Shown: one piece after another, positions 1-40,607 of the stretch
How the letters are laid out: every line of letters starts with the position of its first letter
How positions within the stretch are numbered: the stretch's first letter is position 1
DNA from: Paucibacter sp. KBW04
Lineage (GTDB): Bacteria; Pseudomonadota; Gammaproteobacteria; Burkholderiales; Burkholderiaceae_C
Assembly: GCF_003852425.1 (NCBI RefSeq)
Contig: NZ_QAJN01000015.1
Span: forward strand, 186,001 to 250,000
Reading direction: 5' to 3'
Length of the DNA stretch: 64,000 nt
The notes under the pieces: generated by a model
What the model saw: the letters and a program-made list of their open reading frames with translations, nothing else
Told to the model about the DNA's origin: nothing
The model's database searches: none
Translations under genes and position numbers: made by a program

Positions 1-855
1 GCCGCCACCCGCGCCCTCGGTGTGGAAGGTGTGAATGGTGCGGCCCTTGAAGGCGGCCACCGTGTCTTCGACAAAGCCGCTTTCGTTCAAGGTGTCGCTG
101 TGGATGGCGACCTGCGTGTCTGTCGCCTCGGCCACATTCAGGCAGTTGTCAATCGCGGCGGGCGTCGTGCCCCAGTCCTCATGCAGCTTGAGGCCGATGG
201 CGCCGGCATTGATTTGCTCGTGCAAGGCCGCGGGAAGACTGGCATTGCCCTTCCCCAGAAAGCCCAGATTCATCGGAAAAGCATCGGCCGCCTGCAGCAT
301 GCGCTCGAGATGCCAGGCCCCCGGCGTGCAGGTGGTGGCAAAAGTGCCGGTGGCCGGGCCTGTGCCGCCGCCCAGCATGGTGGTGACGCCGCTGCTCAGC
401 GCCTCTTCGATCTGCTGCGGGCAGATGAAGTGGATGTGCGTGTCGATGGCGCCGGCGGTGACTATCATGCCCTCACAGGCAATCACCTCGGTGCCGGGGC
501 CGATGATGATGTCCACCCCCGGCTGGGTGTCGGGGTTGCCGGCCTTTCCGATGGCCACGATGCGGCTTTTCTTCAGGCCGATATCGGCCTTGATGATGCC
601 CCAGTGGTCGAGGATCAGGGCATTGGTTAGCACCGTATCGACGGCACCTTCGTCGCGCGTTCGCTGCGACTGCGCCATGCCGTCGCGTATGGTCTTGCCG
701 CCGCCGAACTTGACCTCCTCGCCATAGCCCCCAGCGCACAGGGTCAGGTCTTGCTCCACCTCGATGATCAGCGCCGTGTCGGCCAGGCGCAGGCGGTCGC
801 CCACGGTGGGGCCGTACATCTCGGCGTATGCGCGTCGTCCGATCTTGCTGCTCAT
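1..855 (-). CDS. ureC: Urease subunit alpha, N-terminal part (cut by window edge)
   Basis: UreC carries the dinickel centre that hydrolyses urea to ammonia and carbamate in the cytoplasm. Only the first 285 residues lie in the window; the gene runs on past position 1. Metal-site residues fall six positions after those of Klebsiella urease: His140 and His142 (DTHIHF), the lysine that is carbamylated in the family at 223 with His225 (GLKLHEDWG), His252 and His278 ([10 protein letters not shown]). The start ATG at 855-853 overlaps the ureB stop as ATGA, which implies translational coupling. It is the last visible gene of a minus-strand ureA-ureB-ureC operon. The reverse complement of 741-754 contains the repeated word GCAAGACCTGACCC, here coding for part of EQDLTL. 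Confidence 0.97.
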
Positions 856-17917: not shown

Positions 17918-18937
17918 ATGAAAAAGACATCGATTGTTCGGCTGGCTGCCTTGGGCACTCTCGGCACCTTGTCGCTGGCGGCCACGGCCCAATCCTCCGT
18001 TACCCTGTGGGGCACGGTGGACGCCAATGTGCGTTACTCCGACGCCAATGGCCAGAACACCACGCGCCTGGGCACCGACGGCAAGGACAGCAGCACCGTG
18101 GGCCTGCGCGGCTGGGAAGACCTGGGCGGCGGCCTGAAGGCAGGCTTCTGGTTGGAGCATCGCTTCAACCCCGATGACGGCAGCATCAATAGCTCCGGCA
18201 GGCAGTGGCATGGCCGCTCCTCGATCAGCTTGGCCGGCAACTTCGGTGAGCTGCGCCTGGGCCGCTTCACCACGCCCAGCTACGACAACTATCTGGACTA
18301 CGACGCCTTCAACGGCAATGGCGTGGGCGCGGTCACCACCTTGCATTCCGATTTGGGCAGCAAGGTCGAAACCATGAGCCGCACGGACAACACGGTGGCC
18401 TATTACATGCCGACGACGCAAGGCGGCTTCTTCGGCAATGTGAGCATGGCCGCAGGCGAAGGCGCGGACGGCAAGAAGTACGCCGGTGCTCGCCTGGGTT
18501 GGAGCCAGGGTGCCGCCAAGGTGAGTGCCTCCTACGGCGAAACCAACACGCTGAACAGCAAGTACAAGCAGACCTCCATCGGCGGCTCCTACGACTTTGG
18601 CGTCGTCAAGACCATGGCCTCGGTGTCGGAAAACAAGTTCCAGGATCTGAAGCAGAACATCTACACCATCGGCGCCCATATGCCGGTCAGCGCTCACGGC
18701 ACCATCCGCGCCTCTTACGCCATGGTGGATGGCAATGCCGCGGCCGAGAACGCCATGTACGGCGACAGCAAGCAGCTGACCCTGGGCTACCTCTACGACA
18801 TGTCCAAGCGCACAGCGCTCTACTCCTCGGTCTCGCATATGACGAATACCAAGGCCAGCCTGGCGACCGGTGACTTGGCCGTGCTGCCCGGCGGCAGCTC
18901 GACCGCGCTGGAGATGGGCATCGTGCACCGCTTCTAA
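17918..18937 (+). CDS. Gram-negative porin, OmpC-like
   Basis: This 339-residue outer-membrane protein starts with a signal peptide (MKKTSIVRLAALGTLGTLSL, cleaved after ATA) and then SSVTLWGTVDANVRY, the standard beginning of Burkholderiales trimeric porins. It includes GLRGWEDLGGGLKAGFWLEH, the constriction-loop segment GRFTTPSYDN, and ends in the C-terminal aromatic residue F (VHRF) needed for barrel assembly. The start at 17918 has AGAGGAG upstream and gives the signal peptide directly; the frame extends upstream without a function. A strong terminator follows at 18967. Confidence 0.95.
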   Translation: MKKTSIVRLAALGTLGTLSLAATAQSSVTLWGTVDANVRYSDANGQNTTRLGTDGKDSSTVGLRGWEDLGGGLKAGFWLEHRFNPDDGSINSSGRQWHGRSSISLAGNFGELRLGRFTTPSYDNYLDYDAFNGNGVGAVTTLHSDLGSKVETMSRTDNTVAYYMPTTQGGFFGNVSMAAGEGADGKKYAGARLGWSQGAAKVSASYGETNTLNSKYKQTSIGGSYDFGVVKTMASVSENKFQDLKQNIYTIGAHMPVSAHGTIRASYAMVDGNAAAENAMYGDSKQLTLGYLYDMSKRTALYSSVSHMTNTKASLATGDLAVLPGGSSTALEMGIVHRF

Positions 18938-18966
18938 GCCGGCTGTTCTGCAGGCTTGAAAAACTC

Positions 18967-19005
18967 AAGGCCACGGGGCTCGCAGCTCCGTGGCCTTGTT
19001 GTTTG
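18967..19005 (+). terminator. Rho-independent terminator after porin gene
   Basis: The stem AAGGCCACGG (18968-18977) pairs with CCGTGGCCTT (18988-18997), with further pairing of GGCT and AGCT inside, and is followed by a T-rich tail TGTTGTTTGT. It ends porin transcription and separates it from the convergent ppk2 gene. Confidence 0.85.
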
Positions 19006-19018
19006 TCAGCTCAAAGCA

Positions 19019-20260
19019 TCAGGGCTTGAGCGGCTCGAAATGGCCGTGCGTGTGGCCCTCGCCGCGCTCATAGACCACATTGGCCCGGCCCACCAGCAGC
19101 GGGTCCAGCTGGCCGATCTTGTCCAGGTCTTTGTTGGTATAGGGCAGCTGATGCAGGATGTGGCGCATGGCATTCAGGCGCGCGCGCTTTTTGCAATCGG
19201 ACTTGACCACCGTCCAGGGCGCCTCGGCAATGTCCGTGTGATAGAACATGGCCTCCTTGGCCTTGGTGTAGGTCTCCCATTTGTCCAGCGAGGCCTTGTC
19301 GATGGGGGACAGCTTCCACTGCTTGAGCGGGTGCGCCTCGCGCTCCTTGAAACGGCGGCGCTGCTCTTCGCGGCTGACCGAGAACCAGAACTTGATCACA
19401 TGCATGCCTGAGCGGGTCAGATTGCGCTCGAACTCGGGCGCCTGACGCATGAACTCGTTGTACTCGTCATTGGTGCAAAAACCCATCACCCGCTCAACGC
19501 CGGCGCGGTTGTACCAGCTGCGGTCAAACATGACGATCTCGCCCGCCGTGGGCAGATGCTGCACATAGCGCTGGAAGTACCACTGGCCGCGCTCCACATC
19601 GCTGGGTTTTTCCAGCGCCACGACGCGCGCACCGCGAGGATTCAAATGCTCCATAAAGCGCTTGATGGTGCCGCCCTTGCCCGCGGCGTCACGCCCCTCA
19701 AACAGCACCACCACCTTGGCTCCCGTGGCCTTGACCCAGGCCTGCAGCTTCAGCAGTTCCACCTGCAGGCGGTACTTCTGCTTCTCGTAAGCCTTGCGGG
19801 ACATCAGGTTCTTGTAGGGGTAGGCACCACTGCGCCAGTGCGCCGACAACTCGTCATCCGGGTTGATCAAGCCCGCGCTGACGGGGCCGGGGTGCAGCTC
19901 GGCCAGCAAGGCCTGGCGCAAGGCCTTGGCATCGTCGGGCGAGGCGCCGGCCACCATGGCACGCACCGAGTTCGCCACCGCGTCCGCCCCCCCGTTGACC
20001 ATCACATCCTTCAGCGCCACCAGCTCCCGCGCCTGGGCTTTTTCCACCGCGTCCTTCACCACATGGCGAGCGATGCGATCCTGGTCCAGCGAACCCGCCG
20101 TGTCACCGCTGCGGCTGCGTCGGGGTTTGGGGGCGCTTGTGTTGGCAAGACCATTGAGCGTGGACTTCTTCTTGCCCACACCGTTGACGGCGAGGCGCTT
20201 GGCCGAATCGGCCGCCTTGGCGCGGCCGGTCCGCGCAGGACGAGGGCTGTTTGTACTCAT
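19019..20260 (-). CDS. ppk2: Polyphosphate kinase 2
   Basis: PPK2 moves phosphate between polyphosphate and nucleotides. The 413-residue protein has a basic, probably disordered N-terminus of about 55 residues and a C-terminal PPK2 domain with Walker A FEGRDAAGKGG at 187-197, Walker B FDRSWYNRAGVE starting at 245, and the lid segment RRRFKEREAHPLKQWKLSPID. It is the one-domain type with an N-terminal extension. Substrate preference (AMP, ADP or GDP) cannot be read. A minus-strand terminator stands about 240 bases upstream, so it has its own promoter in 20261-20490. Confidence 0.94.
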   Translation of the reverse strand: MSTNSPRPARTGRAKAADSAKRLAVNGVGKKKSTLNGLANTSAPKPRRSRSGDTAGSLDQDRIARHVVKDAVEKAQARELVALKDVMVNGGADAVANSVRAMVAGASPDDAKALRQALLAELHPGPVSAGLINPDDELSAHWRSGAYPYKNLMSRKAYEKQKYRLQVELLKLQAWVKATGAKVVVLFEGRDAAGKGGTIKRFMEHLNPRGARVVALEKPSDVERGQWYFQRYVQHLPTAGEIVMFDRSWYNRAGVERVMGFCTNDEYNEFMRQAPEFERNLTRSGMHVIKFWFSVSREEQRRRFKEREAHPLKQWKLSPIDKASLDKWETYTKAKEAMFYHTDIAEAPWTVVKSDCKKRARLNAMRHILHQLPYTNKDLDKIGQLDPLLVGRANVVYERGEGHTHGHFEPLKP

Positions 20261-20488
20261 GGTGTCTTCAGCGTTGAGGGTTGATCGGTCATGAACCTGT
20301 CACATTGACACTTTCGCAGGGGCCTGTCCTTGATGCAACTCAAGATTGAACGGCATGTGCACATGGATATCCCACGCTTGACGACTGCATCCCGGACATT
20401 GTTCACAGGCCGCTTCGGTGCTTCGCAAACCCCTTCTGGTGCAAAACCGCCAGCGCCTGCACCAAGGCCATGCCCGCTTCTCCACAGG

Positions 20489-20525
20489 CAGACAAAAAAA
20501 GCCCCTGGCTTGTGGCCAGGGGCTT
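20489..20525 (-). terminator. Strong minus-strand rho-independent terminator
   Basis: On the minus strand the stem AAGCCCCTGGC pairs with GCCAGGGGCTT (11 bp, plus strand 20499-20509 and 20515-20525) around a 5-base loop and is followed by seven T residues. No annotated gene on the minus strand reads into it, which points to a short non-coding transcript starting just upstream. Confidence 0.85.
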
Positions 20526-20565
20526 GAAATCCACCCAGGGGCGGTGGAGGAGACAACTGAAGATA
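20491..20565 (-). ncRNA. Candidate sigma-54-dependent small RNA, about 75 nt
   Basis: A sigma-54 promoter at 20575-20591 would start transcription near 20565, and a strong terminator ends it near 20491. The predicted RNA has a CU-rich 5' part containing CUCCUCC, which is complementary to Shine-Dalgarno sites, then a small hairpin UCCACC/GGUGGA, then the terminator hairpin. No ORF with a start and ribosome-binding site fits in it. It lies between ppk2 and the beta-helix gene. An alternative is a leader or attenuator for ppk2. Confidence 0.6.
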
Positions 20566-20574
20566 CTTTGACTT

Positions 20575-20591
20575 TGCAGGAAGCGTGCCAA
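20575..20591 (-). promoter_or_regulatory. Sigma-54 promoter (-24/-12)
   Basis: The minus strand reads TTGGCACG-CTTC-CTGCA. The -24 block matches TGGCACG exactly, the -12 block matches TTGCW except at its first base, and the GG and GC pairs are separated by exactly ten bases. A terminator lies about 75 bases downstream of the predicted start. Confidence 0.65.
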
Positions 20592-20737
20592 GTACGGAAG
20601 TTGGCGGCTGCGCTGGGTGAGATTCAAGCGCCCTTGTCACAGCGGCAGTGCAATCCCTGCTGGTCGCCCCCAAGCGAGGCTGCTACAAAACCGTACAAGG
20701 CCGTCAGGCGGCTCACGTCGAAGTGGGGAGGGTAGAC

Positions 20738-23700
20738 ATGGAATGGCGCATAGACGCCTCGGCGCCGAGCGCCTGGCGTGACCTGCAGGCCGCTTTGGCG
20801 CAGGCTTGTGAGGGGGGCGTTTTGCGGCTCGGTGCCGGTCGCATTGCCGGCCCACAGCCGCTTCAGCCACCCGCCGGCGTGACGCTCGTGGGCGAACCCG
20901 GCACAAGCATCGTTTGCACTTCTTCCGAGCCGGCCATCCTCATCGCCGCTGACGGCGTCACCCTCAGCGGCCTTCGCGTCGAGGCTCACGCTGCCGGGCA
21001 GACCCTGCTGCGTATCGCGCCCTGCGTCGGCGCTCGAGTGATTGACTGCCAGTTCGATGGTCTTGGTTTGGCTGGCATCGCCATCGATGTGGATCGCGCC
21101 AAGGAAGTCTTGGTTGAGGGCTGTCGCATCCATGGATGCAGCGATGAGGACGTGCCTGATCGTGCTGGCATCCTCTTCAGGTCAGCCCAGGGTGAAGTGC
21201 GCGAATGTTCCCTCATCGGTGGGCGAAACGGCATTCGGGCGCAACGCAGCGCCGGTGCACTTGATCTGGCCTCACATCTGTTCGTGCGCGCCTGCACGGT
21301 AAGCGATGCCTTGTATAGCTGCATCAGATTTCTTTCCAGCCAGGGTCTGGCCGAAGGCAACGAGTGCTGGGGCAGCCGCAAGAACAGCGGCATCGTCGTC
21401 CAACGAGATAGCAATTCGCTCGACGCCCCCAGCGAGGTAACGCTGAGAGGTAATCGATGCCATGACAACAACGAGGCTGGCATCGTCTTCGCTTCCAGCA
21501 ATGGCTTGGCCGAATACAACGAGTGCTGGGGCAGTCGCACACGCAGCGGCATCTTCGTCCAGCGTGACCCCAATTCGTACGACACCCCCAGCGAGGTAAC
21601 TTTGCGAGGCAACAGCTGTCATGACAACGAACTCGATGGAATCTCCTTCCTTTCCGCCAAGGGCCTAGCCGAAGGCAACGAGTGCTGGGGCAGTCGCACT
21701 CGCAGCGGCATATTCGTCCAGCGTGACCCCAATTCGTGCGACGCCCCCAGCGAGGTAACTTTGCGAGGCAACAGTTGTCATGACAACGAACTCGATGGAA
21801 TCTCCTTCTTTTCCGCCAAGGGCCTAGCCGAAGGCAACGAGTGCTGGGGCAGTCGCACAGGCAGCGGTATCTTCCTCCAGCACGACGCCAAATCGCCCGG
21901 TGCCCCCAGCGACGTAACTCTGCGCGGCAATCGCTGCCACGACAACGAGATTCATGGCATTCACTTCACTTCTTGCAAGGGCCTGGCTGAAGACAACGAG
22001 TGCTGGAGCAGCCGCGACGGCAGCGGCATCTTCATCTTTAGCGACTCCAATTCGTGCGACGCCCCTAACGACCTAGTCTTGCGCCGAAATCGCTGCCATG
22101 ACAATGAACACGCTGGCATCTGCTTCTCGTCCGCCAAGGGCTTGGCCGAATACAACGAGTGCTGGGGCAGTCGTGCGCGCGGCGGCATCGTCGTCCAACC
22201 AGATCGCGATTCGTCCGATGCACCCAGCGAGGTAACTTTGCGAGGCAACAGCTGTCATGACAACGAACTCGATGGCATCTGCTTCATTTCTGCCAAGGGC
22301 CTGGCCGAATACAACGAGTGCTGGGGCAGTCGGAAGAGATGCGGCATCGCCGTCGAACGAGATAGCGATTCACCCGGCGCCCCCAGCGAGGTAACTCTGC
22401 GCGCCAATCGCTGCCATGACAACGAGCGCCATGGCATCAGTTTCGATTCAAGCAAGGGCTTGGCCGAATACAACGAGTGCTGGGGCAGTCGCACGCGCAG
22501 CGGTATCGTCGTCCAGCATGACGCCGATTTCGCCGATTCCCCCAGCGAGGTGACTCTGCGCAGCAACCGCTGCCATGACAACGAACAGGCTGGCATCGTC
22601 TTCGCTTCCAGCAATGGCTTGGCCGAATACAACGAGTGCTGGGGTTGTCGAACGCACAGCGGTATTGTCGTTCAGCCTAGCCCCGATTCGCGCGGCGGCC
22701 CCAACAAGGTAACTCTGCGAGGCAATCGCTGTCATGACAATGAACTGGCTGGCATCATCTTCTTTTCCAGCAACGGCCAGGCAGAAAACAATGAGTGCTG
22801 GGGCAACAAAGCAAACAATGAGGTGGTTCGCCAAACCAGCCCAGCCGTCACGATCACCCATCACCACACCCTACCCCAGGTGCCGCCCCATGAGCTGCGT
22901 CTTGCCCATCATGCGGCTCATCCGCTGGCGGCCTGGCTGCGTGCGGGTCCCGAACCCGAGCTGCGCCACCGGCTGGCGGACTTTGTGTGGAGTGGCTGCG
23001 CGCACTGCCTCGCAAGCTGGCAGGGCGGGCGGCGACGCGAGCCGAGGCTGGGGTCAACACCGGTACCCGATCTGGAGAAAGTGCCTCATCTCTTCACGCT
23101 GAAGGCGCAGGAAACGCGGGGCGGGGCTGTACAGATTGCGCGTGCACGACTTGTTCAGCTGCTTAGCGAGGGAGCCACCCAATCGCCCGCACCGGGCCTG
23201 CCCATGCTGGACGCGCTGTTGGCCCGGGTGGGGGCACTGGAGCACGCACGCCGGGGCAAACGCAGCCCGAAGCGCGAACCCATCGAGGCGCTGCGTGAGC
23301 CGGTGGCCTTGGTTTCGGCGGATACGCCAGCGCTGGACGCTTGGTTGCAAGACAAGAAAAGGCAGCGCGCAGCCCTGGGCCACCGGCAGGGCCCGCGCGG
23401 GGCGGCGCAGGGCTTTCGGCTGATGGTGTTGGACGGCCTGGGCCATGACGCGGGCGGGACTGGCCCCGCTGGCGAAACGGGCTTCCTCGTGGCTTCGCTG
23501 CTGCGAGGCTGCACCCCCCTTCAAAAATGTTTGAAGGCTTTGCGCGCCTGGCTGCAAGCGCCGCTGGACGCAGTGGTTATCTCGCTATTGATAGCGGGCC
23601 TTGGTTTGGCCTTTGTCACGTGGTGGCTGGCTCCGGCTGGGGCTAGCCCTCTGGCACCGGCACTTACCCAGCTGTTGGCCGCCCCAGGCGAGATGGCGGC

Positions 23701-25759
23701 CTGGGGCAAGCTGCGTGAGGCGGTGAGCGCGGTGTGGAGCGCAGGCTTTCCGCTGGATGACTGGAAGACATTAGTCAACCTGCTGTTGGTCGTTGTCTTG
23801 CTGCTGCCGCCGCTGACACGCCTCTTGCCGGAACCCCTGAACCCGGCGTCAATGTTTTTGCGTGCATTGACGAAGATCGTCATGGGCTGTCTCGGCTTGA
23901 AGGACGCGGCCGAAGCCGTGCCCATGCCGCAATGGTTGCGACGGGTTCTGTCCTGGTGGCTGCAAAGCGCCAGCGCCACCCGCAGTTGCTTGCGGCGCGA
24001 GCTCTACGGCGAACCCTTGTTCGCTCCCCTATGGCGCCGCCGCTGGCCCTTGACGCTGGTGTTGGTGCGCGGTGTGGACGCACCCAGCCCCGCCCAGCAA
24101 GAAGAGATGCGCCAAGTGATGGCGCTATGCCCGCGCCGCCATCACTTGCTGCTGGTGATGCAGATGCCGGGGCTGGCCATGGTGACGGGAGGCTTTCTGG
24201 ATACCTGGTTCACACCCGGCCAAGCTTGGCCACCGCAGGCCTGGCTGATCCACGACCCAACTTCCATCGGCTTGCCGACCGGCGGCGAAGACAAGGTCGG
24301 CCCCGAGGCCTTGGTTCGATTGAGCGCTTTGCTGGGATGGCCAAGGAGTGAGGGCGAGGACGAAAAAGCGGCCAACACACTGGGCAAAGCCACCGATTGC
24401 GATCTGCACCCGTTACTGGTGCTGGGTTCTACCGCCCATGCCCACCTGACGCTGTGGCGCGCCAATCAGAGCTATAGCCATATCGCAGAAAGCGTCTGGC
24501 GAAGATGGCAACGCCTGCTCTGGGCCCTGCCCGGCCATCGACGGGTGCCCGGAGACAACTGGCTGGAGAAGCAGGACAAGGCGACGCAACTTGGCACCGC
24601 CTTGCTGCTGGTGAAGGGGCCTCACGGCCAGCGCATGGCCTGGGTGGGCCGGGCCGGCTGGCGGCGCGCCTTGGCTGCGGCACTACAGGGCTATTTTCAG
24701 CAGCAAAGGGGAACGTCGGCCGACAGCTATCTGGCCAAGCTGCTGGCTGGCGCGGAGCGCGAACACCTGCGCAGCTCGCGGCGCCACTGGCGCGCTTGGC
24801 GCGGCACGGAACCGACGGATCGCACGGCCCTGCAGCGCGGCCTGCTGCACCTGGAGGCCGCACTCGACCTCGCCCTGGAGCGGGGGCAGCTGGGAGGCAG
24901 TGGAGACGACGCCCAGCTGCGCAGCGACTGGCGCATGGTGGGCATCTACGCTGAGGCCGGCCGACGCGAGCTAGAAAAGGCGGACCGCCTCCGCTTGGCG
25001 GGTGTGTTGCTTCGCGCCGAAGAACGCTATAGCGAAGAGGCCGGTCCTAAGCCCCTGCTCGCCAAGGCCCTGGCCGAGCCCTTGGACAAATCGGTGCCAA
25101 AAATTTGGGCTGAGCTGGCTGGGGACTTCCGGGACTTGTCCGATCAACTCGCAGTTTGCGGCGCAGCCACCGCGGCTGAGGTGCTGGACAGCCTTCGCCG
25201 CCAGGAATGGGCGGCGCTGCCGGATGCCATCCACCAGGCCCTGCGCGATCGCGTAGCGGCCAGGGCCGCGACGGCTTGGCACCGTTTGAAGGCGGCCAAG
25301 ACCGAGGCCGAACTCAGCGGTGCCTGCGCGGCTCTGGCAGGCCGCCCAATGCTCTTGCTGGGGCTGCTGGGCCGAATGGCTACGGCGAGCGTGCGTCACC
25401 ATGTAACTGAGGGCAGCAATCTGGCCGAGGCCTTGGGCGAAGTGGCGGATGGCCTGCTTGTGCTGGCCGATGCTTTGCCGCCTGAGTTGCCGACTGAAGA
25501 GCTGCCCGACTGGCAGCCATTGGGTGAAACGCCCGTTTGCAACTGGGCGGCCCGCTTGCTGCGAGAACCCCTCGCTCGCCAGACTTTGGCCGAAGCTATC
25601 GCTCAGGCAGACGCTCGCCTGACCAAGCTGCGTCGCGCCGCAAGCGCCGAAGGTATCGAAGGCTTGGCGATGGGCACCCATGGCGCGATCAACCGCGAGT
25701 TGAGTCAGGGAGCAGACGCCGAAGACTGGGAGTTGCGAGAAGACAATCCTGGCACCTAA
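20738..25759 (+). CDS. Giant right-handed beta-helix protein with membrane and possible NTPase-like part
   Basis: This 1673-residue protein has no signal peptide. Residues 1-202 look like the first turns of a parallel beta-helix; 203-679 are nine tandem 53-residue units, each with two turns ending in NECWG and NxCHDNE, plus a partial tenth unit. From about 700 the sequence changes: two membrane segments lie near 944-966 and 1009-1030, and LTLVLVRGVDAPSPAQQ near 1104 followed by HHLLLVMQMPG recalls a Walker-B region of KAP-type NTPases in degenerate form, without a clear P-loop. The C-terminal 500 residues are helical and unassigned. The ATG at 20738 with GGGGAGGG is chosen over the frame start 20648. 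It converges with the RES/Xre pair, 10 bases away. Function unknown; a defence or surface role is conceivable. Confidence 0.8.
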   Translation: MEWRIDASAPSAWRDLQAALAQACEGGVLRLGAGRIAGPQPLQPPAGVTLVGEPGTSIVCTSSEPAILIAADGVTLSGLRVEAHAAGQTLLRIAPCVGARVIDCQFDGLGLAGIAIDVDRAKEVLVEGCRIHGCSDEDVPDRAGILFRSAQGEVRECSLIGGRNGIRAQRSAGALDLASHLFVRACTVSDALYSCIRFLSSQGLAEGNECWGSRKNSGIVVQRDSNSLDAPSEVTLRGNRCHDNNEAGIVFASSNGLAEYNECWGSRTRSGIFVQRDPNSYDTPSEVTLRGNSCHDNELDGISFLSAKGLAEGNECWGSRTRSGIFVQRDPNSCDAPSEVTLRGNSCHDNELDGISFFSAKGLAEGNECWGSRTGSGIFLQHDAKSPGAPSDVTLRGNRCHDNEIHGIHFTSCKGLAEDNECWSSRDGSGIFIFSDSNSCDAPNDLVLRRNRCHDNEHAGICFSSAKGLAEYNECWGSRARGGIVVQPDRDSSDAPSEVTLRGNSCHDNELDGICFISAKGLAEYNECWGSRKRCGIAVERDSDSPGAPSEVTLRANRCHDNERHGISFDSSKGLAEYNECWGSRTRSGIVVQHDADFADSPSEVTLRSNRCHDNEQAGIVFASSNGLAEYNECWGCRTHSGIVVQPSPDSRGGPNKVTLRGNRCHDNELAGIIFFSSNGQAENNECWGNKANNEVVRQTSPAVTITHHHTLPQVPPHELRLAHHAAHPLAAWLRAGPEPELRHRLADFVWSGCAHCLASWQGGRRREPRLGSTPVPDLEKVPHLFTLKAQETRGGAVQIARARLVQLLSEGATQSPAPGLPMLDALLARVGALEHARRGKRSPKREPIEALREPVALVSADTPALDAWLQDKKRQRAALGHRQGPRGAAQGFRLMVLDGLGHDAGGTGPAGETGFLVASLLRGCTPLQKCLKALRAWLQAPLDAVVISLLIAGLGLAFVTWWLAPAGASPLAPALTQLLAAPGEMAAWGKLREAVSAVWSAGFPLDDWKTLVNLLLVVVLLLPPLTRLLPEPLNPASMFLRALTKIVMGCLGLKDAAEAVPMPQWLRRVLSWWLQSASATRSCLRRELYGEPLFAPLWRRRWPLTLVLVRGVDAPSPAQQEEMRQVMALCPRRHHLLLVMQMPGLAMVTGGFLDTWFTPGQAWPPQAWLIHDPTSIGLPTGGEDKVGPEALVRLSALLGWPRSEGEDEKAANTLGKATDCDLHPLLVLGSTAHAHLTLWRANQSYSHIAESVWRRWQRLLWALPGHRRVPGDNWLEKQDKATQLGTALLLVKGPHGQRMAWVGRAGWRRALAAALQGYFQQQRGTSADSYLAKLLAGAEREHLRSSRRHWRAWRGTEPTDRTALQRGLLHLEAALDLALERGQLGGSGDDAQLRSDWRMVGIYAEAGRRELEKADRLRLAGVLLRAEERYSEEAGPKPLLAKALAEPLDKSVPKIWAELAGDFRDLSDQLAVCGAATAAEVLDSLRRQEWAALPDAIHQALRDRVAARAATAWHRLKAAKTEAELSGACAALAGRPMLLLGLLGRMATASVRHHVTEGSNLAEALGEVADGLLVLADALPPELPTEELPDWQPLGETPVCNWAARLLREPLARQTLAEAIAQADARLTKLRRAASAEGIEGLAMGTHGAINRELSQGADAEDWELREDNPGT
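21344..22840 (+). repeat. Tandem 159-bp coding repeats (nine full, one partial)
   Basis: Nine units of 159 bp run from 21344 to 22774, and a partial tenth follows. Each encodes a 53-residue beta-helix double turn starting GLAE-NECWG. Units 2 and 3 (from 21503 and 21662) are almost identical at the DNA level, including silent positions, so copy number has probably changed recently. Variable residues cluster in the QRD-NS and NE--GI loops. Confidence 0.95.
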
Positions 25760-25769
25760 TCGATTGCCT

Positions 25770-26351
25770 TCAAGGCATCAAATCCAAAGCGCTCCCCACC
25801 AAAGCCCCCGCCACCACCCCATGCAGATTGCCCGTACTTGCTTCCACCAAACGCTCAGACCAAGCGGGCTTGAGCTGGCTCAGGGCCTCGCCGAACAAGG
25901 CATAGCAATCGGCCCCGAATTGCTGCGCTGAGCGATAGACGATGCCCTCAAAACCGTGGCGATAGGCGTCCAGCGCCAGCGCCTGGGTGTGCTTGAAACG
26001 CAGGGACTGCAGCACCGGCCAACTGGAAGCGTGTGGGCGCAGGTCGAGCAAGCTCATGCCCGAAAGGGTTTGCAAGCACAGCAGCGAGCGCTTCTCTAGC
26101 TGGGTGAAGGACACGGCCGTGGTCTCACGGCGGCAGAGCGATTCGAACACCGCGGCCTCGGGGCTTTCGGCGAAATAGCCGACCGGCACGCCGGGCAGAT
26201 CAAAGCGGCCCGAGAGCAAATGGCTGGGCGCCAAGCGCAGGGCGCCGATGCGCACCGTGTCTGGGCGGGCACGCGCCAGCTGAATGCGGAACAAGGCTTG
26301 GCCGGCGCTCAGATCGGACTGCGGCGCGTACTGAAGGCTGGCGAGTTTCAC
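25770..26351 (-). CDS. RES-domain toxin
   Basis: This 193-residue protein has the RES fold markers: an N-terminal arginine in ALFRIQLAR, the segment SGRFDLPGVPVGYFAESPEAAVFES, and a later conserved serine in VYRSAQQFGADCYALF. RES toxins of type II toxin-antitoxin pairs degrade NAD+. It follows its probable antitoxin by 13 bases on the minus strand, the usual order. Length is typical. Its 3' end nearly touches the convergent beta-helix gene. Confidence 0.87.
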   Translation of the reverse strand: MKLASLQYAPQSDLSAGQALFRIQLARARPDTVRIGALRLAPSHLLSGRFDLPGVPVGYFAESPEAAVFESLCRRETTAVSFTQLEKRSLLCLQTLSGMSLLDLRPHASSWPVLQSLRFKHTQALALDAYRHGFEGIVYRSAQQFGADCYALFGEALSQLKPAWSERLVEASTGNLHGVVAGALVGSALDLMP

Positions 26352-39663: not shown

Positions 39664-40236
39664 TCAACTCGTCAGCAGCTTTTCCATGAAGAGGCTGAAG
39701 GGGTCGGCGCGATAGTTGCCAAAGGGGCCGCAGCGCTCGAAGCCCATGCGCTCGTACAGGCGCTGGGCGGCGGGCTGGCGCACACCGGTTTCCAGGCGCA
39801 GCAGATGGCGGCCGGCGGCCAGCGCTTCCTTCTGCAAGGCCGACACCAGGAGCGAGCCCAGGCCCAGGCCGCGCTGCTCGGGCGCCACCATCATGCGTTT
39901 GAGCTCGGCGTGGTCCTCATGCAAGACCAGCGCGCCGCAAGCCACCGCCCGCTGCTGTGCATCGCGCACCACCAGCAGGCGCACCTGGGGCTGCATCAGT
40001 GCAGTGAGGGGCAGCAGATGGTTGTTGGCGGCGGGGTAAAGCTCGTTCTGATACGCATCCAGGGCGGCGATCAAGGCCTGCACCTCGGGCTGATCGGCAC
40101 GCTCGCGCCTGATGCTGAAGGCGGCCGTCTCGCTGCGCGAGGGCTGGGCCACGGCACGGCCACGCGAGACCCACAGCTGCCCCGGCGCAAAGCCCATACG
40201 GCCGGTCGAGACCGGCGGCAAACGATCCTGGCTCAT
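39664..40236 (-). CDS. GNAT family N-acetyltransferase
   Basis: This 190-residue protein has the acetyl-CoA site pattern LKRMMVAPEQRGLGLGSLLV and the C-terminal QRLYERMGFERCGPFGNY. Substrate is unknown. The ATG at 40236 is supported by GAGGAGGG eight bases upstream; the frame extends to 40389 without a better start. It appears monocistronic. Confidence 0.88.
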   Translation of the reverse strand: MSQDRLPPVSTGRMGFAPGQLWVSRGRAVAQPSRSETAAFSIRRERADQPEVQALIAALDAYQNELYPAANNHLLPLTALMQPQVRLLVVRDAQQRAVACGALVLHEDHAELKRMMVAPEQRGLGLGSLLVSALQKEALAAGRHLLRLETGVRQPAAQRLYERMGFERCGPFGNYRADPFSLFMEKLLTS

Positions 40237-40607
40237 GGGCAGACCCTCCTCGACCGGTGAAGAAACTGGGGAGCAGGCAATCGACGGTGGCGCGGCAAGA
40301 AAATGAAGACTCATGGGAAACAAAAGAGAGGGGCCAAGACCGGCAACCAGGCCGGACATCAGCCCACAGAAGCGTGCCGAAGCGTGCAAAAGATCAGGGC
40401 AGGAACACGCCCCAAAAAAGTCAAAGCAAGGAAGTCAATGCAATTGACGTGCCAGGCCAGCGGACAAAAGCCTGATCGACCGGCGGGCCGCCAGGTCAAA
40501 TCTCATGAGGCTTGGCACCGGCGCTTTCTCGCGTCCCGCGAGAAGCAGACCAGCGCCGCTATTTTCGCAGCTTCTCGACGCCTTGTTTTGGCTGTGGACT
40601 CTGGAAT
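40237..40607. other. Intergenic region, nothing recognised
   Basis: This 371-base stretch between the GNAT gene and the 2OG-oxygenase gene holds the GNAT promoter and leader. Frames here have no ribosome-binding sites and unusual codon use. I see no repeat, RNA gene or clear terminator. Confidence 0.5.

What the first reader, a model, noticed from the sequence alone, without database searches (positions are those of the whole stretch)
20489..20591. Candidate sigma-54 small RNA with an anti-Shine-Dalgarno sequence
On the minus strand TTGGCACG-CTTC-CTGCA matches the sigma-54 consensus with exact 10-base GG/GC spacing; about 75 bases after the predicted start stands a perfect 11-bp terminator with seven Ts. 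No gene is between them. The predicted RNA carries CUCCUCC, complementary to ribosome-binding sites, and a small hairpin. Sigma-54-driven sRNAs such as CrcZ and NrsZ in Pseudomonas control carbon or nitrogen use, and this region is rich in urea genes.
Basis: partly seen in the sequence, partly recalled or inferred. Interest (0 to 1): 0.76.

Follow-up and report, generated by a model that had tools for sequence, protein, structure and literature searches.

The report
Small RNA likely under nitrogen control
The spot holds a short regulatory RNA of a known bacterial family that can dampen protein synthesis, here apparently placed under the cell's nitrogen-starvation switch, with the switch's likely landing sites just past the end of the gene instead of before it.

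Summary
First, the RNA is not new: window 20494-20555(-) belongs to Rfam RF02278, "Betaproteobacteria toxic small RNA" (52.5 bits, gathering 50), the family of B. cenocepacia ncS03/05/27/62 and B. pertussis S17. Second, the promoter match alone is near chance in this window; conservation makes it credible. Of 37 RF02278 matches in 18 same-genus genomes, 14 (in 14 genomes) carry TGGCAC-N6-TGC 35-36 nt before UGUCUCCUC; the 18 coq7-linked copies and 5 others do not. Pooling all sources gave 27 distinct such loci; the named ones are all Burkholderiales records, 15 of 24 titled Roseateles or Paucibacter. About 119 RF02278 copies sampled elsewhere have no comparable site.

The likely activator is NtrC. 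The 15-mer TGGCACGGAAGCTGC occurs in 15 of 27 sRNA and 8 of 16 glnK promoters. NtrC half-sites are enriched just downstream of the sRNA terminator (12 of 22 loci above the random 95th percentile, 1 of 22 upstream; 0 of 300 shuffled matrices do as well). Neighbouring genes differ, so the sites travel with the sRNA. Best reading: an NtrC/sigma-54-driven RBS-pairing sRNA, analogous to NrsZ, with a downstream enhancer. No transcript was measured.

The parts
20576..20590 (-). sigma-54 -24/-12 promoter TGGCACG-CTTC-CTGC
   Evidence: score 11/12; TGGCAC-N6-TGC in 14 of 37 same-genus RF02278 copies at -35/-36 from UGUCUCCUC; aligned in 27 distinct loci selected by the motif
20494..20564 (-). predicted sRNA, about 71 nt (start inferred from the -12 element, end at the T run)
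   Evidence: the start is inference
20494..20555 (-). Rfam RF02278 Betaproteobacteria toxic sRNA core
   Evidence: 52.5 bits, gathering 50, model 1-64/64
20546..20555 (-). UGUCUCCUCC: 5' seed, complement of the RBS type GGAGGAGACA; contains CUCCUCC 20546-20552; its last three bases pair in hairpin 1 of the predicted fold
   Evidence: UUGUCUCCUC invariant in 26 of 26 aligned sRNAs; loci were selected with UGUCUCCUC, so this invariance is partly by construction
20530..20548 (-). hairpin 1 (6 bp)
   Evidence: 2 of 6 pairs with compensatory changes
20494..20525 (-). intrinsic terminator, 11-pair stem and T run (hairpin 2)
   Evidence: 4 of 8 consensus pairs with compensatory changes
20458..20474 (-). 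candidate NtrC box 1 GGCATGGCCTTGGTGCA (10/14 to TGCACCAnnnTGGTGCA), centre 124 nt after the -24 start
20427..20443 (-). candidate NtrC box 2 TGCACCAGAAGGGGTTT (9/14), centre 155 nt after the -24 start, 31 bp from box 1
   Evidence: the inverted pair TGGTGC-N16-GCACCA is the only TGGTGC-N5-25-GCACCA in the 64-kb window
19019..20260 (-). ppk2, downstream neighbour in this genome; not constant among sRNA loci, so not part of the unit
   Evidence: PF03976; neighbours vary

Best explanation
A free-standing small RNA gene of the RF02278 family (bdhR/ncS27/S17 type) whose transcription is driven by sigma-54 RNA polymerase and activated by NtrC when nitrogen is short. NtrC dimers bind boxes centred about 125-155 bp downstream of the -24 element, just past the terminator, and reach the polymerase by looping. 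The roughly 71-nt RNA starts about 9 nt before UGUCUCCUCC and pairs through this seed with ribosome-binding sites of the GGAGGAGACA type, lowering translation of a set of mRNAs and so slowing metabolism under nitrogen limitation. Shown here: family membership, conserved promoter, conserved fold, NtrC-type sites next to the gene. Inferred: activation by NtrC, looping from downstream, target repression.
For: RF02278 match over the gathering score. 14 of 37 same-genus copies, in 14 of 18 genomes, carry -24/-12 at -35/-36 from UGUCUCCUC. In 27 distinct loci (selected by the motif) the spacer and the adjoining AAAGC, which were not selected for, are also enriched, while about 130 nt further upstream are not conserved. 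The 15-mer TGGCACGGAAGCTGC is identical in 15 of 27 sRNA and 8 of 16 glnK promoters. GGTGCA and GCACCA were found by unbiased k-mer counting after the terminator (18 against 2.5 and 18 against 3.5 expected, 22 loci). A half-site matrix trained on glnK promoters passes in 12 of 22 loci, against 1 of 22 in each of three other flanks and 2 of 18 coq7-linked copies; 0 of 300 column-shuffled matrices reach 12. The published E. coli NtrC consensus gives p = 4e-8 downstream and p = 0.79 upstream. rpoN and NtrC present. Different genes flank the unit. RBS repression by the family is reported (PMC11722255 abstract and passages; PMC5688073 passages).
Against: No transcript, protein-DNA or target data. 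10 of 22 loci have no strong half-site within 90 nt downstream (L077 has one further on), and the window's own boxes are imperfect (10 and 9 of 14; the best site in a random 90-nt stretch averages 8.0). Box spacing is not uniform: of 12 loci with two sites of 9/14 or better, 4 have centres 31-32 bp apart, the others mostly 19-52. The loci are related, so p-values are optimistic; random stretches were mostly coding. Upstream k-mers were also enriched in a few loci with homologous upstream genes (ATTCGG, 7 of 22), and one locus (L073) has an 11/14 site upstream. A downstream enhancer is unusual for NtrC (recalled). Eleven other strong sigma-54 activators exist. The first NtrC scan showed nothing general, but used a wrong spacer. 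Only one GGAGGAGACA-N0-10-ATG exists genome-wide. S17 was not clearly toxic in E. coli (PMC11722255 section 12).
Confidence: 0.72

Rival explanations
1. Sigma-54-driven RF02278 sRNA whose activator is another enhancer-binding protein, or NtrC bound at remote sites; the downstream half-sites serve something else.
For: 12 strong sigma-54 activators in the genome; 10 of 22 loci lack a strong downstream half-site.
Against: Half-sites match glnK/glnA promoters of the same genome or genus and the published NtrC consensus; neighbours vary while sites stay.
Confidence: 0.2
2. The NtrC-type boxes belong to the downstream gene (ppk2 here); the sRNA has a sigma-54 promoter but is not NtrC-controlled.
For: In the window the boxes lie about 170-210 bp before the ppk2 start.
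Against: Sites scoring 9-13 of 14 also stand next to sRNAs followed by an aldehyde dehydrogenase (L105), a prolyl oligopeptidase (L106), a pyrroline-5-carboxylate-reductase-like gene (L123) and a subtilase (L137).
Confidence: 0.06
3. The unit is a ppk2 leader or an attenuator, not a separate sRNA.
For: ppk2 lies downstream on the same strand.
Against: Strong terminator, a family known as free sRNAs (PMC5688073 section 6), ppk2 not constant among loci.
Confidence: 0.02

Closest known systems
RF02278 'toxic small RNA' family: B. cenocepacia ncS03/ncS05/ncS27/ncS62 (double-hairpin RNAs, bdhR1)
   Same: Whole-length Rfam match; two hairpins; CU-rich RBS-complementary 5' end; short, own terminator (PMC5688073 section 6 and passages).
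   Different: Here a sigma-54 promoter and NtrC-type boxes; about 119 RF02278 copies sampled outside this class show no near-consensus sigma-54 site. Published members were reported raised in biofilm, starvation and glucose medium (PMC5688073 passages); no sigma-54 promoter is mentioned in the passages read.
B. pertussis S17
   Same: Same family; the coq7-linked copy L001 of this genome matches its location beside the benzoquinone monooxygenase gene (PMC11722255 passages; equating that enzyme with COQ7 is recalled).
   Different: S17 comes from a sigma-A promoter and is cut by RNase E from a ~190-nt precursor (PMC11722255 passages); the window copy would start almost at its mature end.
NrsZ of Pseudomonas aeruginosa
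   Same: Nitrogen-responsive sRNA transcribed by RpoN with NtrBC (PMC8395346 passage).
   Different: ~226 nt, processed, encoded in the ntrC-PA5126 intergenic region, activates rhlA translation (PMC8395346 passage); no sequence comparison was run.
CrcZ/CrcY of Pseudomonas
   Same: sigma-54 sRNA genes activated by a response regulator at hexamer subsites in both orientations (PMC6296734 passages).
   Different: CbrB, not NtrC; CrcZ is a 407-nt Hfq decoy (PMC8395346 passage), not an RBS-pairing RNA.

Membership tests
RF02278 Betaproteobacteria toxic small RNA | Covariance-model score at or above gathering (50 bits) over the full model | tested here: met
   window 52.5 bits, 1-64/64. Of its class, 10 of 14 same-genus copies pass and 4 score 42.9-49.8; 6 of 13 loci searched with Rfam pass, 7 do not
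RF02278 Betaproteobacteria toxic small RNA | Two hairpins, the second an intrinsic terminator | tested here: met
   6 of 14 pairs with compensatory changes in 26 sequences
RF02278 Betaproteobacteria toxic small RNA | RBS-complementary CU-rich 5' stretch | tested here: met
   UGUCUCCUCC at 20546-20555
RF02278 Betaproteobacteria toxic small RNA | Growth inhibition on overexpression | not testable with these tools
   reported for other members (PMC4603805, PMC5688073 passages); not clearly so for S17 (PMC11722255 section 12)
sigma-54/NtrC-dependent promoter | -24/-12 with GG-N10-GC | tested here: met
sigma-54/NtrC-dependent promoter | RpoN and NtrC encoded in the genome | tested here: met
   PF04552 hit; TIGR01818 677 bits, cut-off 558.6
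sigma-54/NtrC-dependent promoter | NtrC boxes near the promoter | tested here: inconclusive
   enriched downstream across loci, imperfect in the window itself (10 and 9 of 14)
sigma-54/NtrC-dependent promoter | Dependence of expression on rpoN and ntrC | not testable with these tools
   needs deletions and RNA measurement
NrsZ | Homologous RNA sequence | not tested
   NrsZ was not fetched or compared; no Rfam match of that name at the locus up to E 1. Claimed only as a functional parallel

The most novel reading that the evidence does not exclude
A compact portable cassette (sigma-54 promoter, anti-RBS sRNA, terminator, then NtrC enhancer) in which NtrC activates an sRNA gene from boxes beyond its own terminator; a growth-slowing RNA family was captured by the nitrogen regulator in the Roseateles/Paucibacter group and kept while its genomic address changed.
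Probability: 0.55. Interest if true: 0.7.

Novelty: new variant of a known kind. Interest (0 to 1): 0.56.

Why it matters
RF02278 RNAs are widespread in this order (matches at E <= 0.001 in 158 of 250 genomes drawn, over the gathering score in 93 of 250), but how individual copies are switched on is little described in the papers I saw. A copy wired to NtrC would link a translation-dampening RNA directly to nitrogen status in betaproteobacteria, a parallel to NrsZ. A natural enhancer downstream of a gene of about 70 bp would be a clean system for testing NtrC looping. It also gives a testable division of labour between the coq7-linked copy and the nitrogen copy in one cell.

Tried and rejected
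Upstream activator sites: none conserved in about 130 nt upstream of 27 loci; the half-site matrix is no better than random there. The first NtrC scan used TGCACCA-N5-TGGTGCA, the wrong spacer; replaced by the published N3 form. CbrB-like geometry was considered and set aside when the half-sites proved the same as at glnK/glnA. The inverted pair TTGGTGC-N15-18-GCACCA, searched in 18 same-genus genomes, hits 17 of them, with many hits away from the sRNA, so the pair alone is not specific. Sigma-70 promoter: none found in 18900-21300. Targets: GGAGGAGACA-N0-10-ATG gave one hit in the genome, with no ORF of 90 aa or more starting there. In the window, RBS-like matches of 8-9 nt stand before a [2Fe-2S] protein, a pyridine-nucleotide oxidoreductase (internal start), a GMC oxidoreductase and an unnamed ORF; among 12 sigma-54 activators the best is 8 nt (L299, internal start). 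No target claim is made. The genome-contig scan gave 79 stretches; 24 of 79 show the sRNA fold and T run, the others look like chance across unrelated taxa (judged by eye). L095/L071 (one Comamonadaceae locus, TGGCACA..., with hairpin and T run) may be a diverged member and was dropped. Five near-duplicate loci (L116, L118, L161, L024, L145) were dropped by eye before the 22-locus counts. The three classes of same-genus copies were divided by eye with the promoter in view; coq7 was then found in 18 of 18 of the first class, 0 of 14 and 0 of 5 of the others.

Full report
WHAT IS THERE. On the minus strand 20591-20489 the described elements are all present: TTGGCACG-CTTC-CTGCA with GG-N10-GC (20575-20591), an 11-pair terminator stem with a run of seven Ts, two of them counted in the stem, CUCCUCC and a 6-bp hairpin. 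Two mechanical ORFs of 138 and 105 aa overlap the unit; nothing I ran suggests they are genes. The 80-nt stretch folds better than 200 of 200 shuffles (z -3.99).

FAMILY. Rfam's curated threshold identifies 20494-20555(-) as RF02278, Betaproteobacteria toxic small RNA (52.5 bits, gathering 50, full model). Papers seen on the family: four B. cenocepacia members called double-hairpin RNAs (PMC5688073, section 6 and passages), their start sites (PMC4603805, passages), four in Herbaspirillum (PMC7011215, passages), S17 of B. pertussis, which binds Hfq, represses an mRNA by pairing and comes from a sigma-A promoter (PMC11722255, abstract, passages and section 12), and a review (PMC10987360, passages). 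The first description (Kimelman 2012) and the ncS27 paper (Sass 2019) were not seen, only cited in these.

TWO COPIES, TWO PROMOTERS. The window's genome has two copies. One, L001, lies beside coq7 (PF03232), as S17 lies beside the benzoquinone monooxygenase gene; the other is the window copy. In 18 genomes of the genus there are 37 matches. By eye they fall into 18 coq7-type copies (18 of 18 genomes; coq7 found beside 18 of 18), 14 window-type copies (14 of 18 genomes) and 5 others. TGGCAC-N6-TGC stands 35-36 nt before UGUCUCCUC in the 14 window-type copies and in none of the other 23. Of the 14, 10 pass Rfam's gathering score and 4 fall short. From the family and order searches 120 further loci were taken, 30 auto-fetched from each plus 60 requested; one gave 122 rows, about 119 places since two RNAs were counted twice and one place was fetched twice. 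None has a comparable site: best GG/GC-anchored score 9 of 12 in one row, against 11 here. This sample leans to high-scoring copies; the strict pattern search below covers weaker ones. Several multi-copy genomes share another upstream motif ending in a TATAGT-like -10, perhaps the common motif mentioned for three B. cenocepacia copies, whose figure I could not see.

DISTRIBUTION. A strict promoter-plus-seed pattern hits 20 of 399 family genomes; 15 of these hits have the sRNA fold and T run. In the 84,980-species collection it hits 79 stretches, 24 with the sRNA fold and T run. Of these 24 records 9 are titled Roseateles, 6 Paucibacter, 1 each Pelomonas, Rubrivivax, Methylibium and Burkholderiaceae, 5 Burkholderiales. 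Pooling with the genus and family loci gives 27 distinct loci. They were selected with TGGCACG, YTGC and UGUCUCCUC, so those columns are not evidence; the unselected spacer (GAAG) and the preceding AAAGC are enriched, while about 130 nt further upstream are flat (mean information 0.1-0.4 bits per 10-nt bin). The gap from -12 to UGUCUCCUC is 19-21 nt in 25 of 27 and 26 nt in 2. In 26 aligned RNAs 6 of 14 pairs show double changes.

ACTIVATOR. The genome has one RpoN, 12 strong sigma-54 activators and a clear NtrC (TIGR01818 677 bits, cut-off 558.6). The promoter ahead of one P-II gene, which I call glnK because an ammonium-transporter-like frame follows it (PF00543; the frame read by eye), is TGGCACGGAAGCTGCT; it lies about 0.9 kb before the gene with another frame between. 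The same 15-mer stands in 15 of 27 sRNA promoters and in 8 of 16 glnK promoters of the genus; the other 8 differ in one base. The glnK and glnA (PF00120) promoters carry TTGGTGC/GCACCAA-type half-sites upstream. At the sRNAs the same half-sites lie downstream. Unbiased 6-mer counting in 22 non-redundant loci puts GGTGCA first downstream (18 against 2.5 expected) and GCACCA third (18 against 3.5), behind a word seen twice; upstream, some words shared by loci with homologous upstream genes also stand out (ATTCGG in 7 of 22). A matrix trained only on glnK promoters passes the random 95th percentile in 12 of 22 loci within 90 nt after the terminator, 1 of 22 in each of three other flanks and 2 of 18 coq7-type copies; 0 of 300 shuffled matrices do as well (mean 1.3, highest 9). 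The published consensus TGCACCAnnnTGGTGCA (PMC8743547, passage) scores 9.64 downstream against 8.02 at random (p = 4e-8) and 7.86 upstream (p = 0.79); 7 of 22 reach 11/14 downstream, 1 of 22 upstream, 1.1% at random. The loci are related and the random stretches mostly coding, so these p-values are optimistic. Of 12 loci with two sites of 9/14 or better, window, L137, L100 and L101 have centres 31-32 bp apart, about the separation I recall for the E. coli glnA enhancer; the others mostly range from 19 to 52. In the window the boxes are 20458-20474 and 20427-20443 and imperfect (10 and 9 of 14).

NOT A NEIGHBOUR'S PROPERTY. ppk2 follows in the window, L024, L077 and L140, lies 3.2 kb away in L137, and a ppk2 relative precedes the sRNA in L094 and L145. 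Of 25 downstream frames 10 were given to Pfam: an aldehyde dehydrogenase, a prolyl oligopeptidase, a P5CR-like reductase, a subtilase, a chemotaxis receptor, a LuxR-type regulator, one weak DHHA1 match and three without a match. In several loci a mechanical upstream frame ends or starts within about 60 bp of the -24 element, leaving little non-coding room upstream; a downstream enhancer would fit this, which is inference.

HOW IT WOULD WORK. Shown: family, promoter conservation, RNA conservation, NtrC-type sites. Inferred: nitrogen limitation activates NtrC, NtrC loops from downstream, and a ~71-nt RNA represses mRNAs through UGUCUCCUCC. The family's RBS-pairing is reported in others' work; here only a few 8-9 nt matches in the window were seen and no target is claimed.

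IN PRINT? The library searches found four papers naming RF02278; in the passages read none gives a sigma-54 or NtrC promoter for a member. Supplementary files, subscription papers and Sass 2019 were not seen, so the claim is limited to that. NrsZ (PMC8395346, passages) is the closest functional parallel I found.

Noticed in passing
window 40439-40454 (-): A perfect 12/12 sigma-54 match TGGCACGTCAATTGCA stands upstream of a GNAT acetyltransferase ORF (39664-40389 -); no activator site or conservation was examined.
   Followed up: no
window 402-691 (+): Rfam RF02514 5' ureB sRNA match (106 bits) lies antisense to the urease alpha gene (1-855 -); it may only reflect coding conservation.
   Followed up: no
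window 20738-26351: A 1673-aa beta-helix repeat protein and a RES-domain gene stand between the sRNA and urtA; in L077 and L140 urtA is divergent from the sRNA at 251 and 383 bp, so this may be an insertion.
   Followed up: partly
L201-L206, L209, L220, L225: Genomes with several RF02278 copies share an upstream motif like TATCTG-N-TAT ... AAAGCAGAC ... TATAGT ending next to UGUCUCC; some copies are in tandem.
   Followed up: no
L032, L033, L034, L036, L037: Five further same-genus RF02278-like copies keep UGUCUCCUC but have other stems, no sigma-54 site and no coq7 beside them.
   Followed up: no
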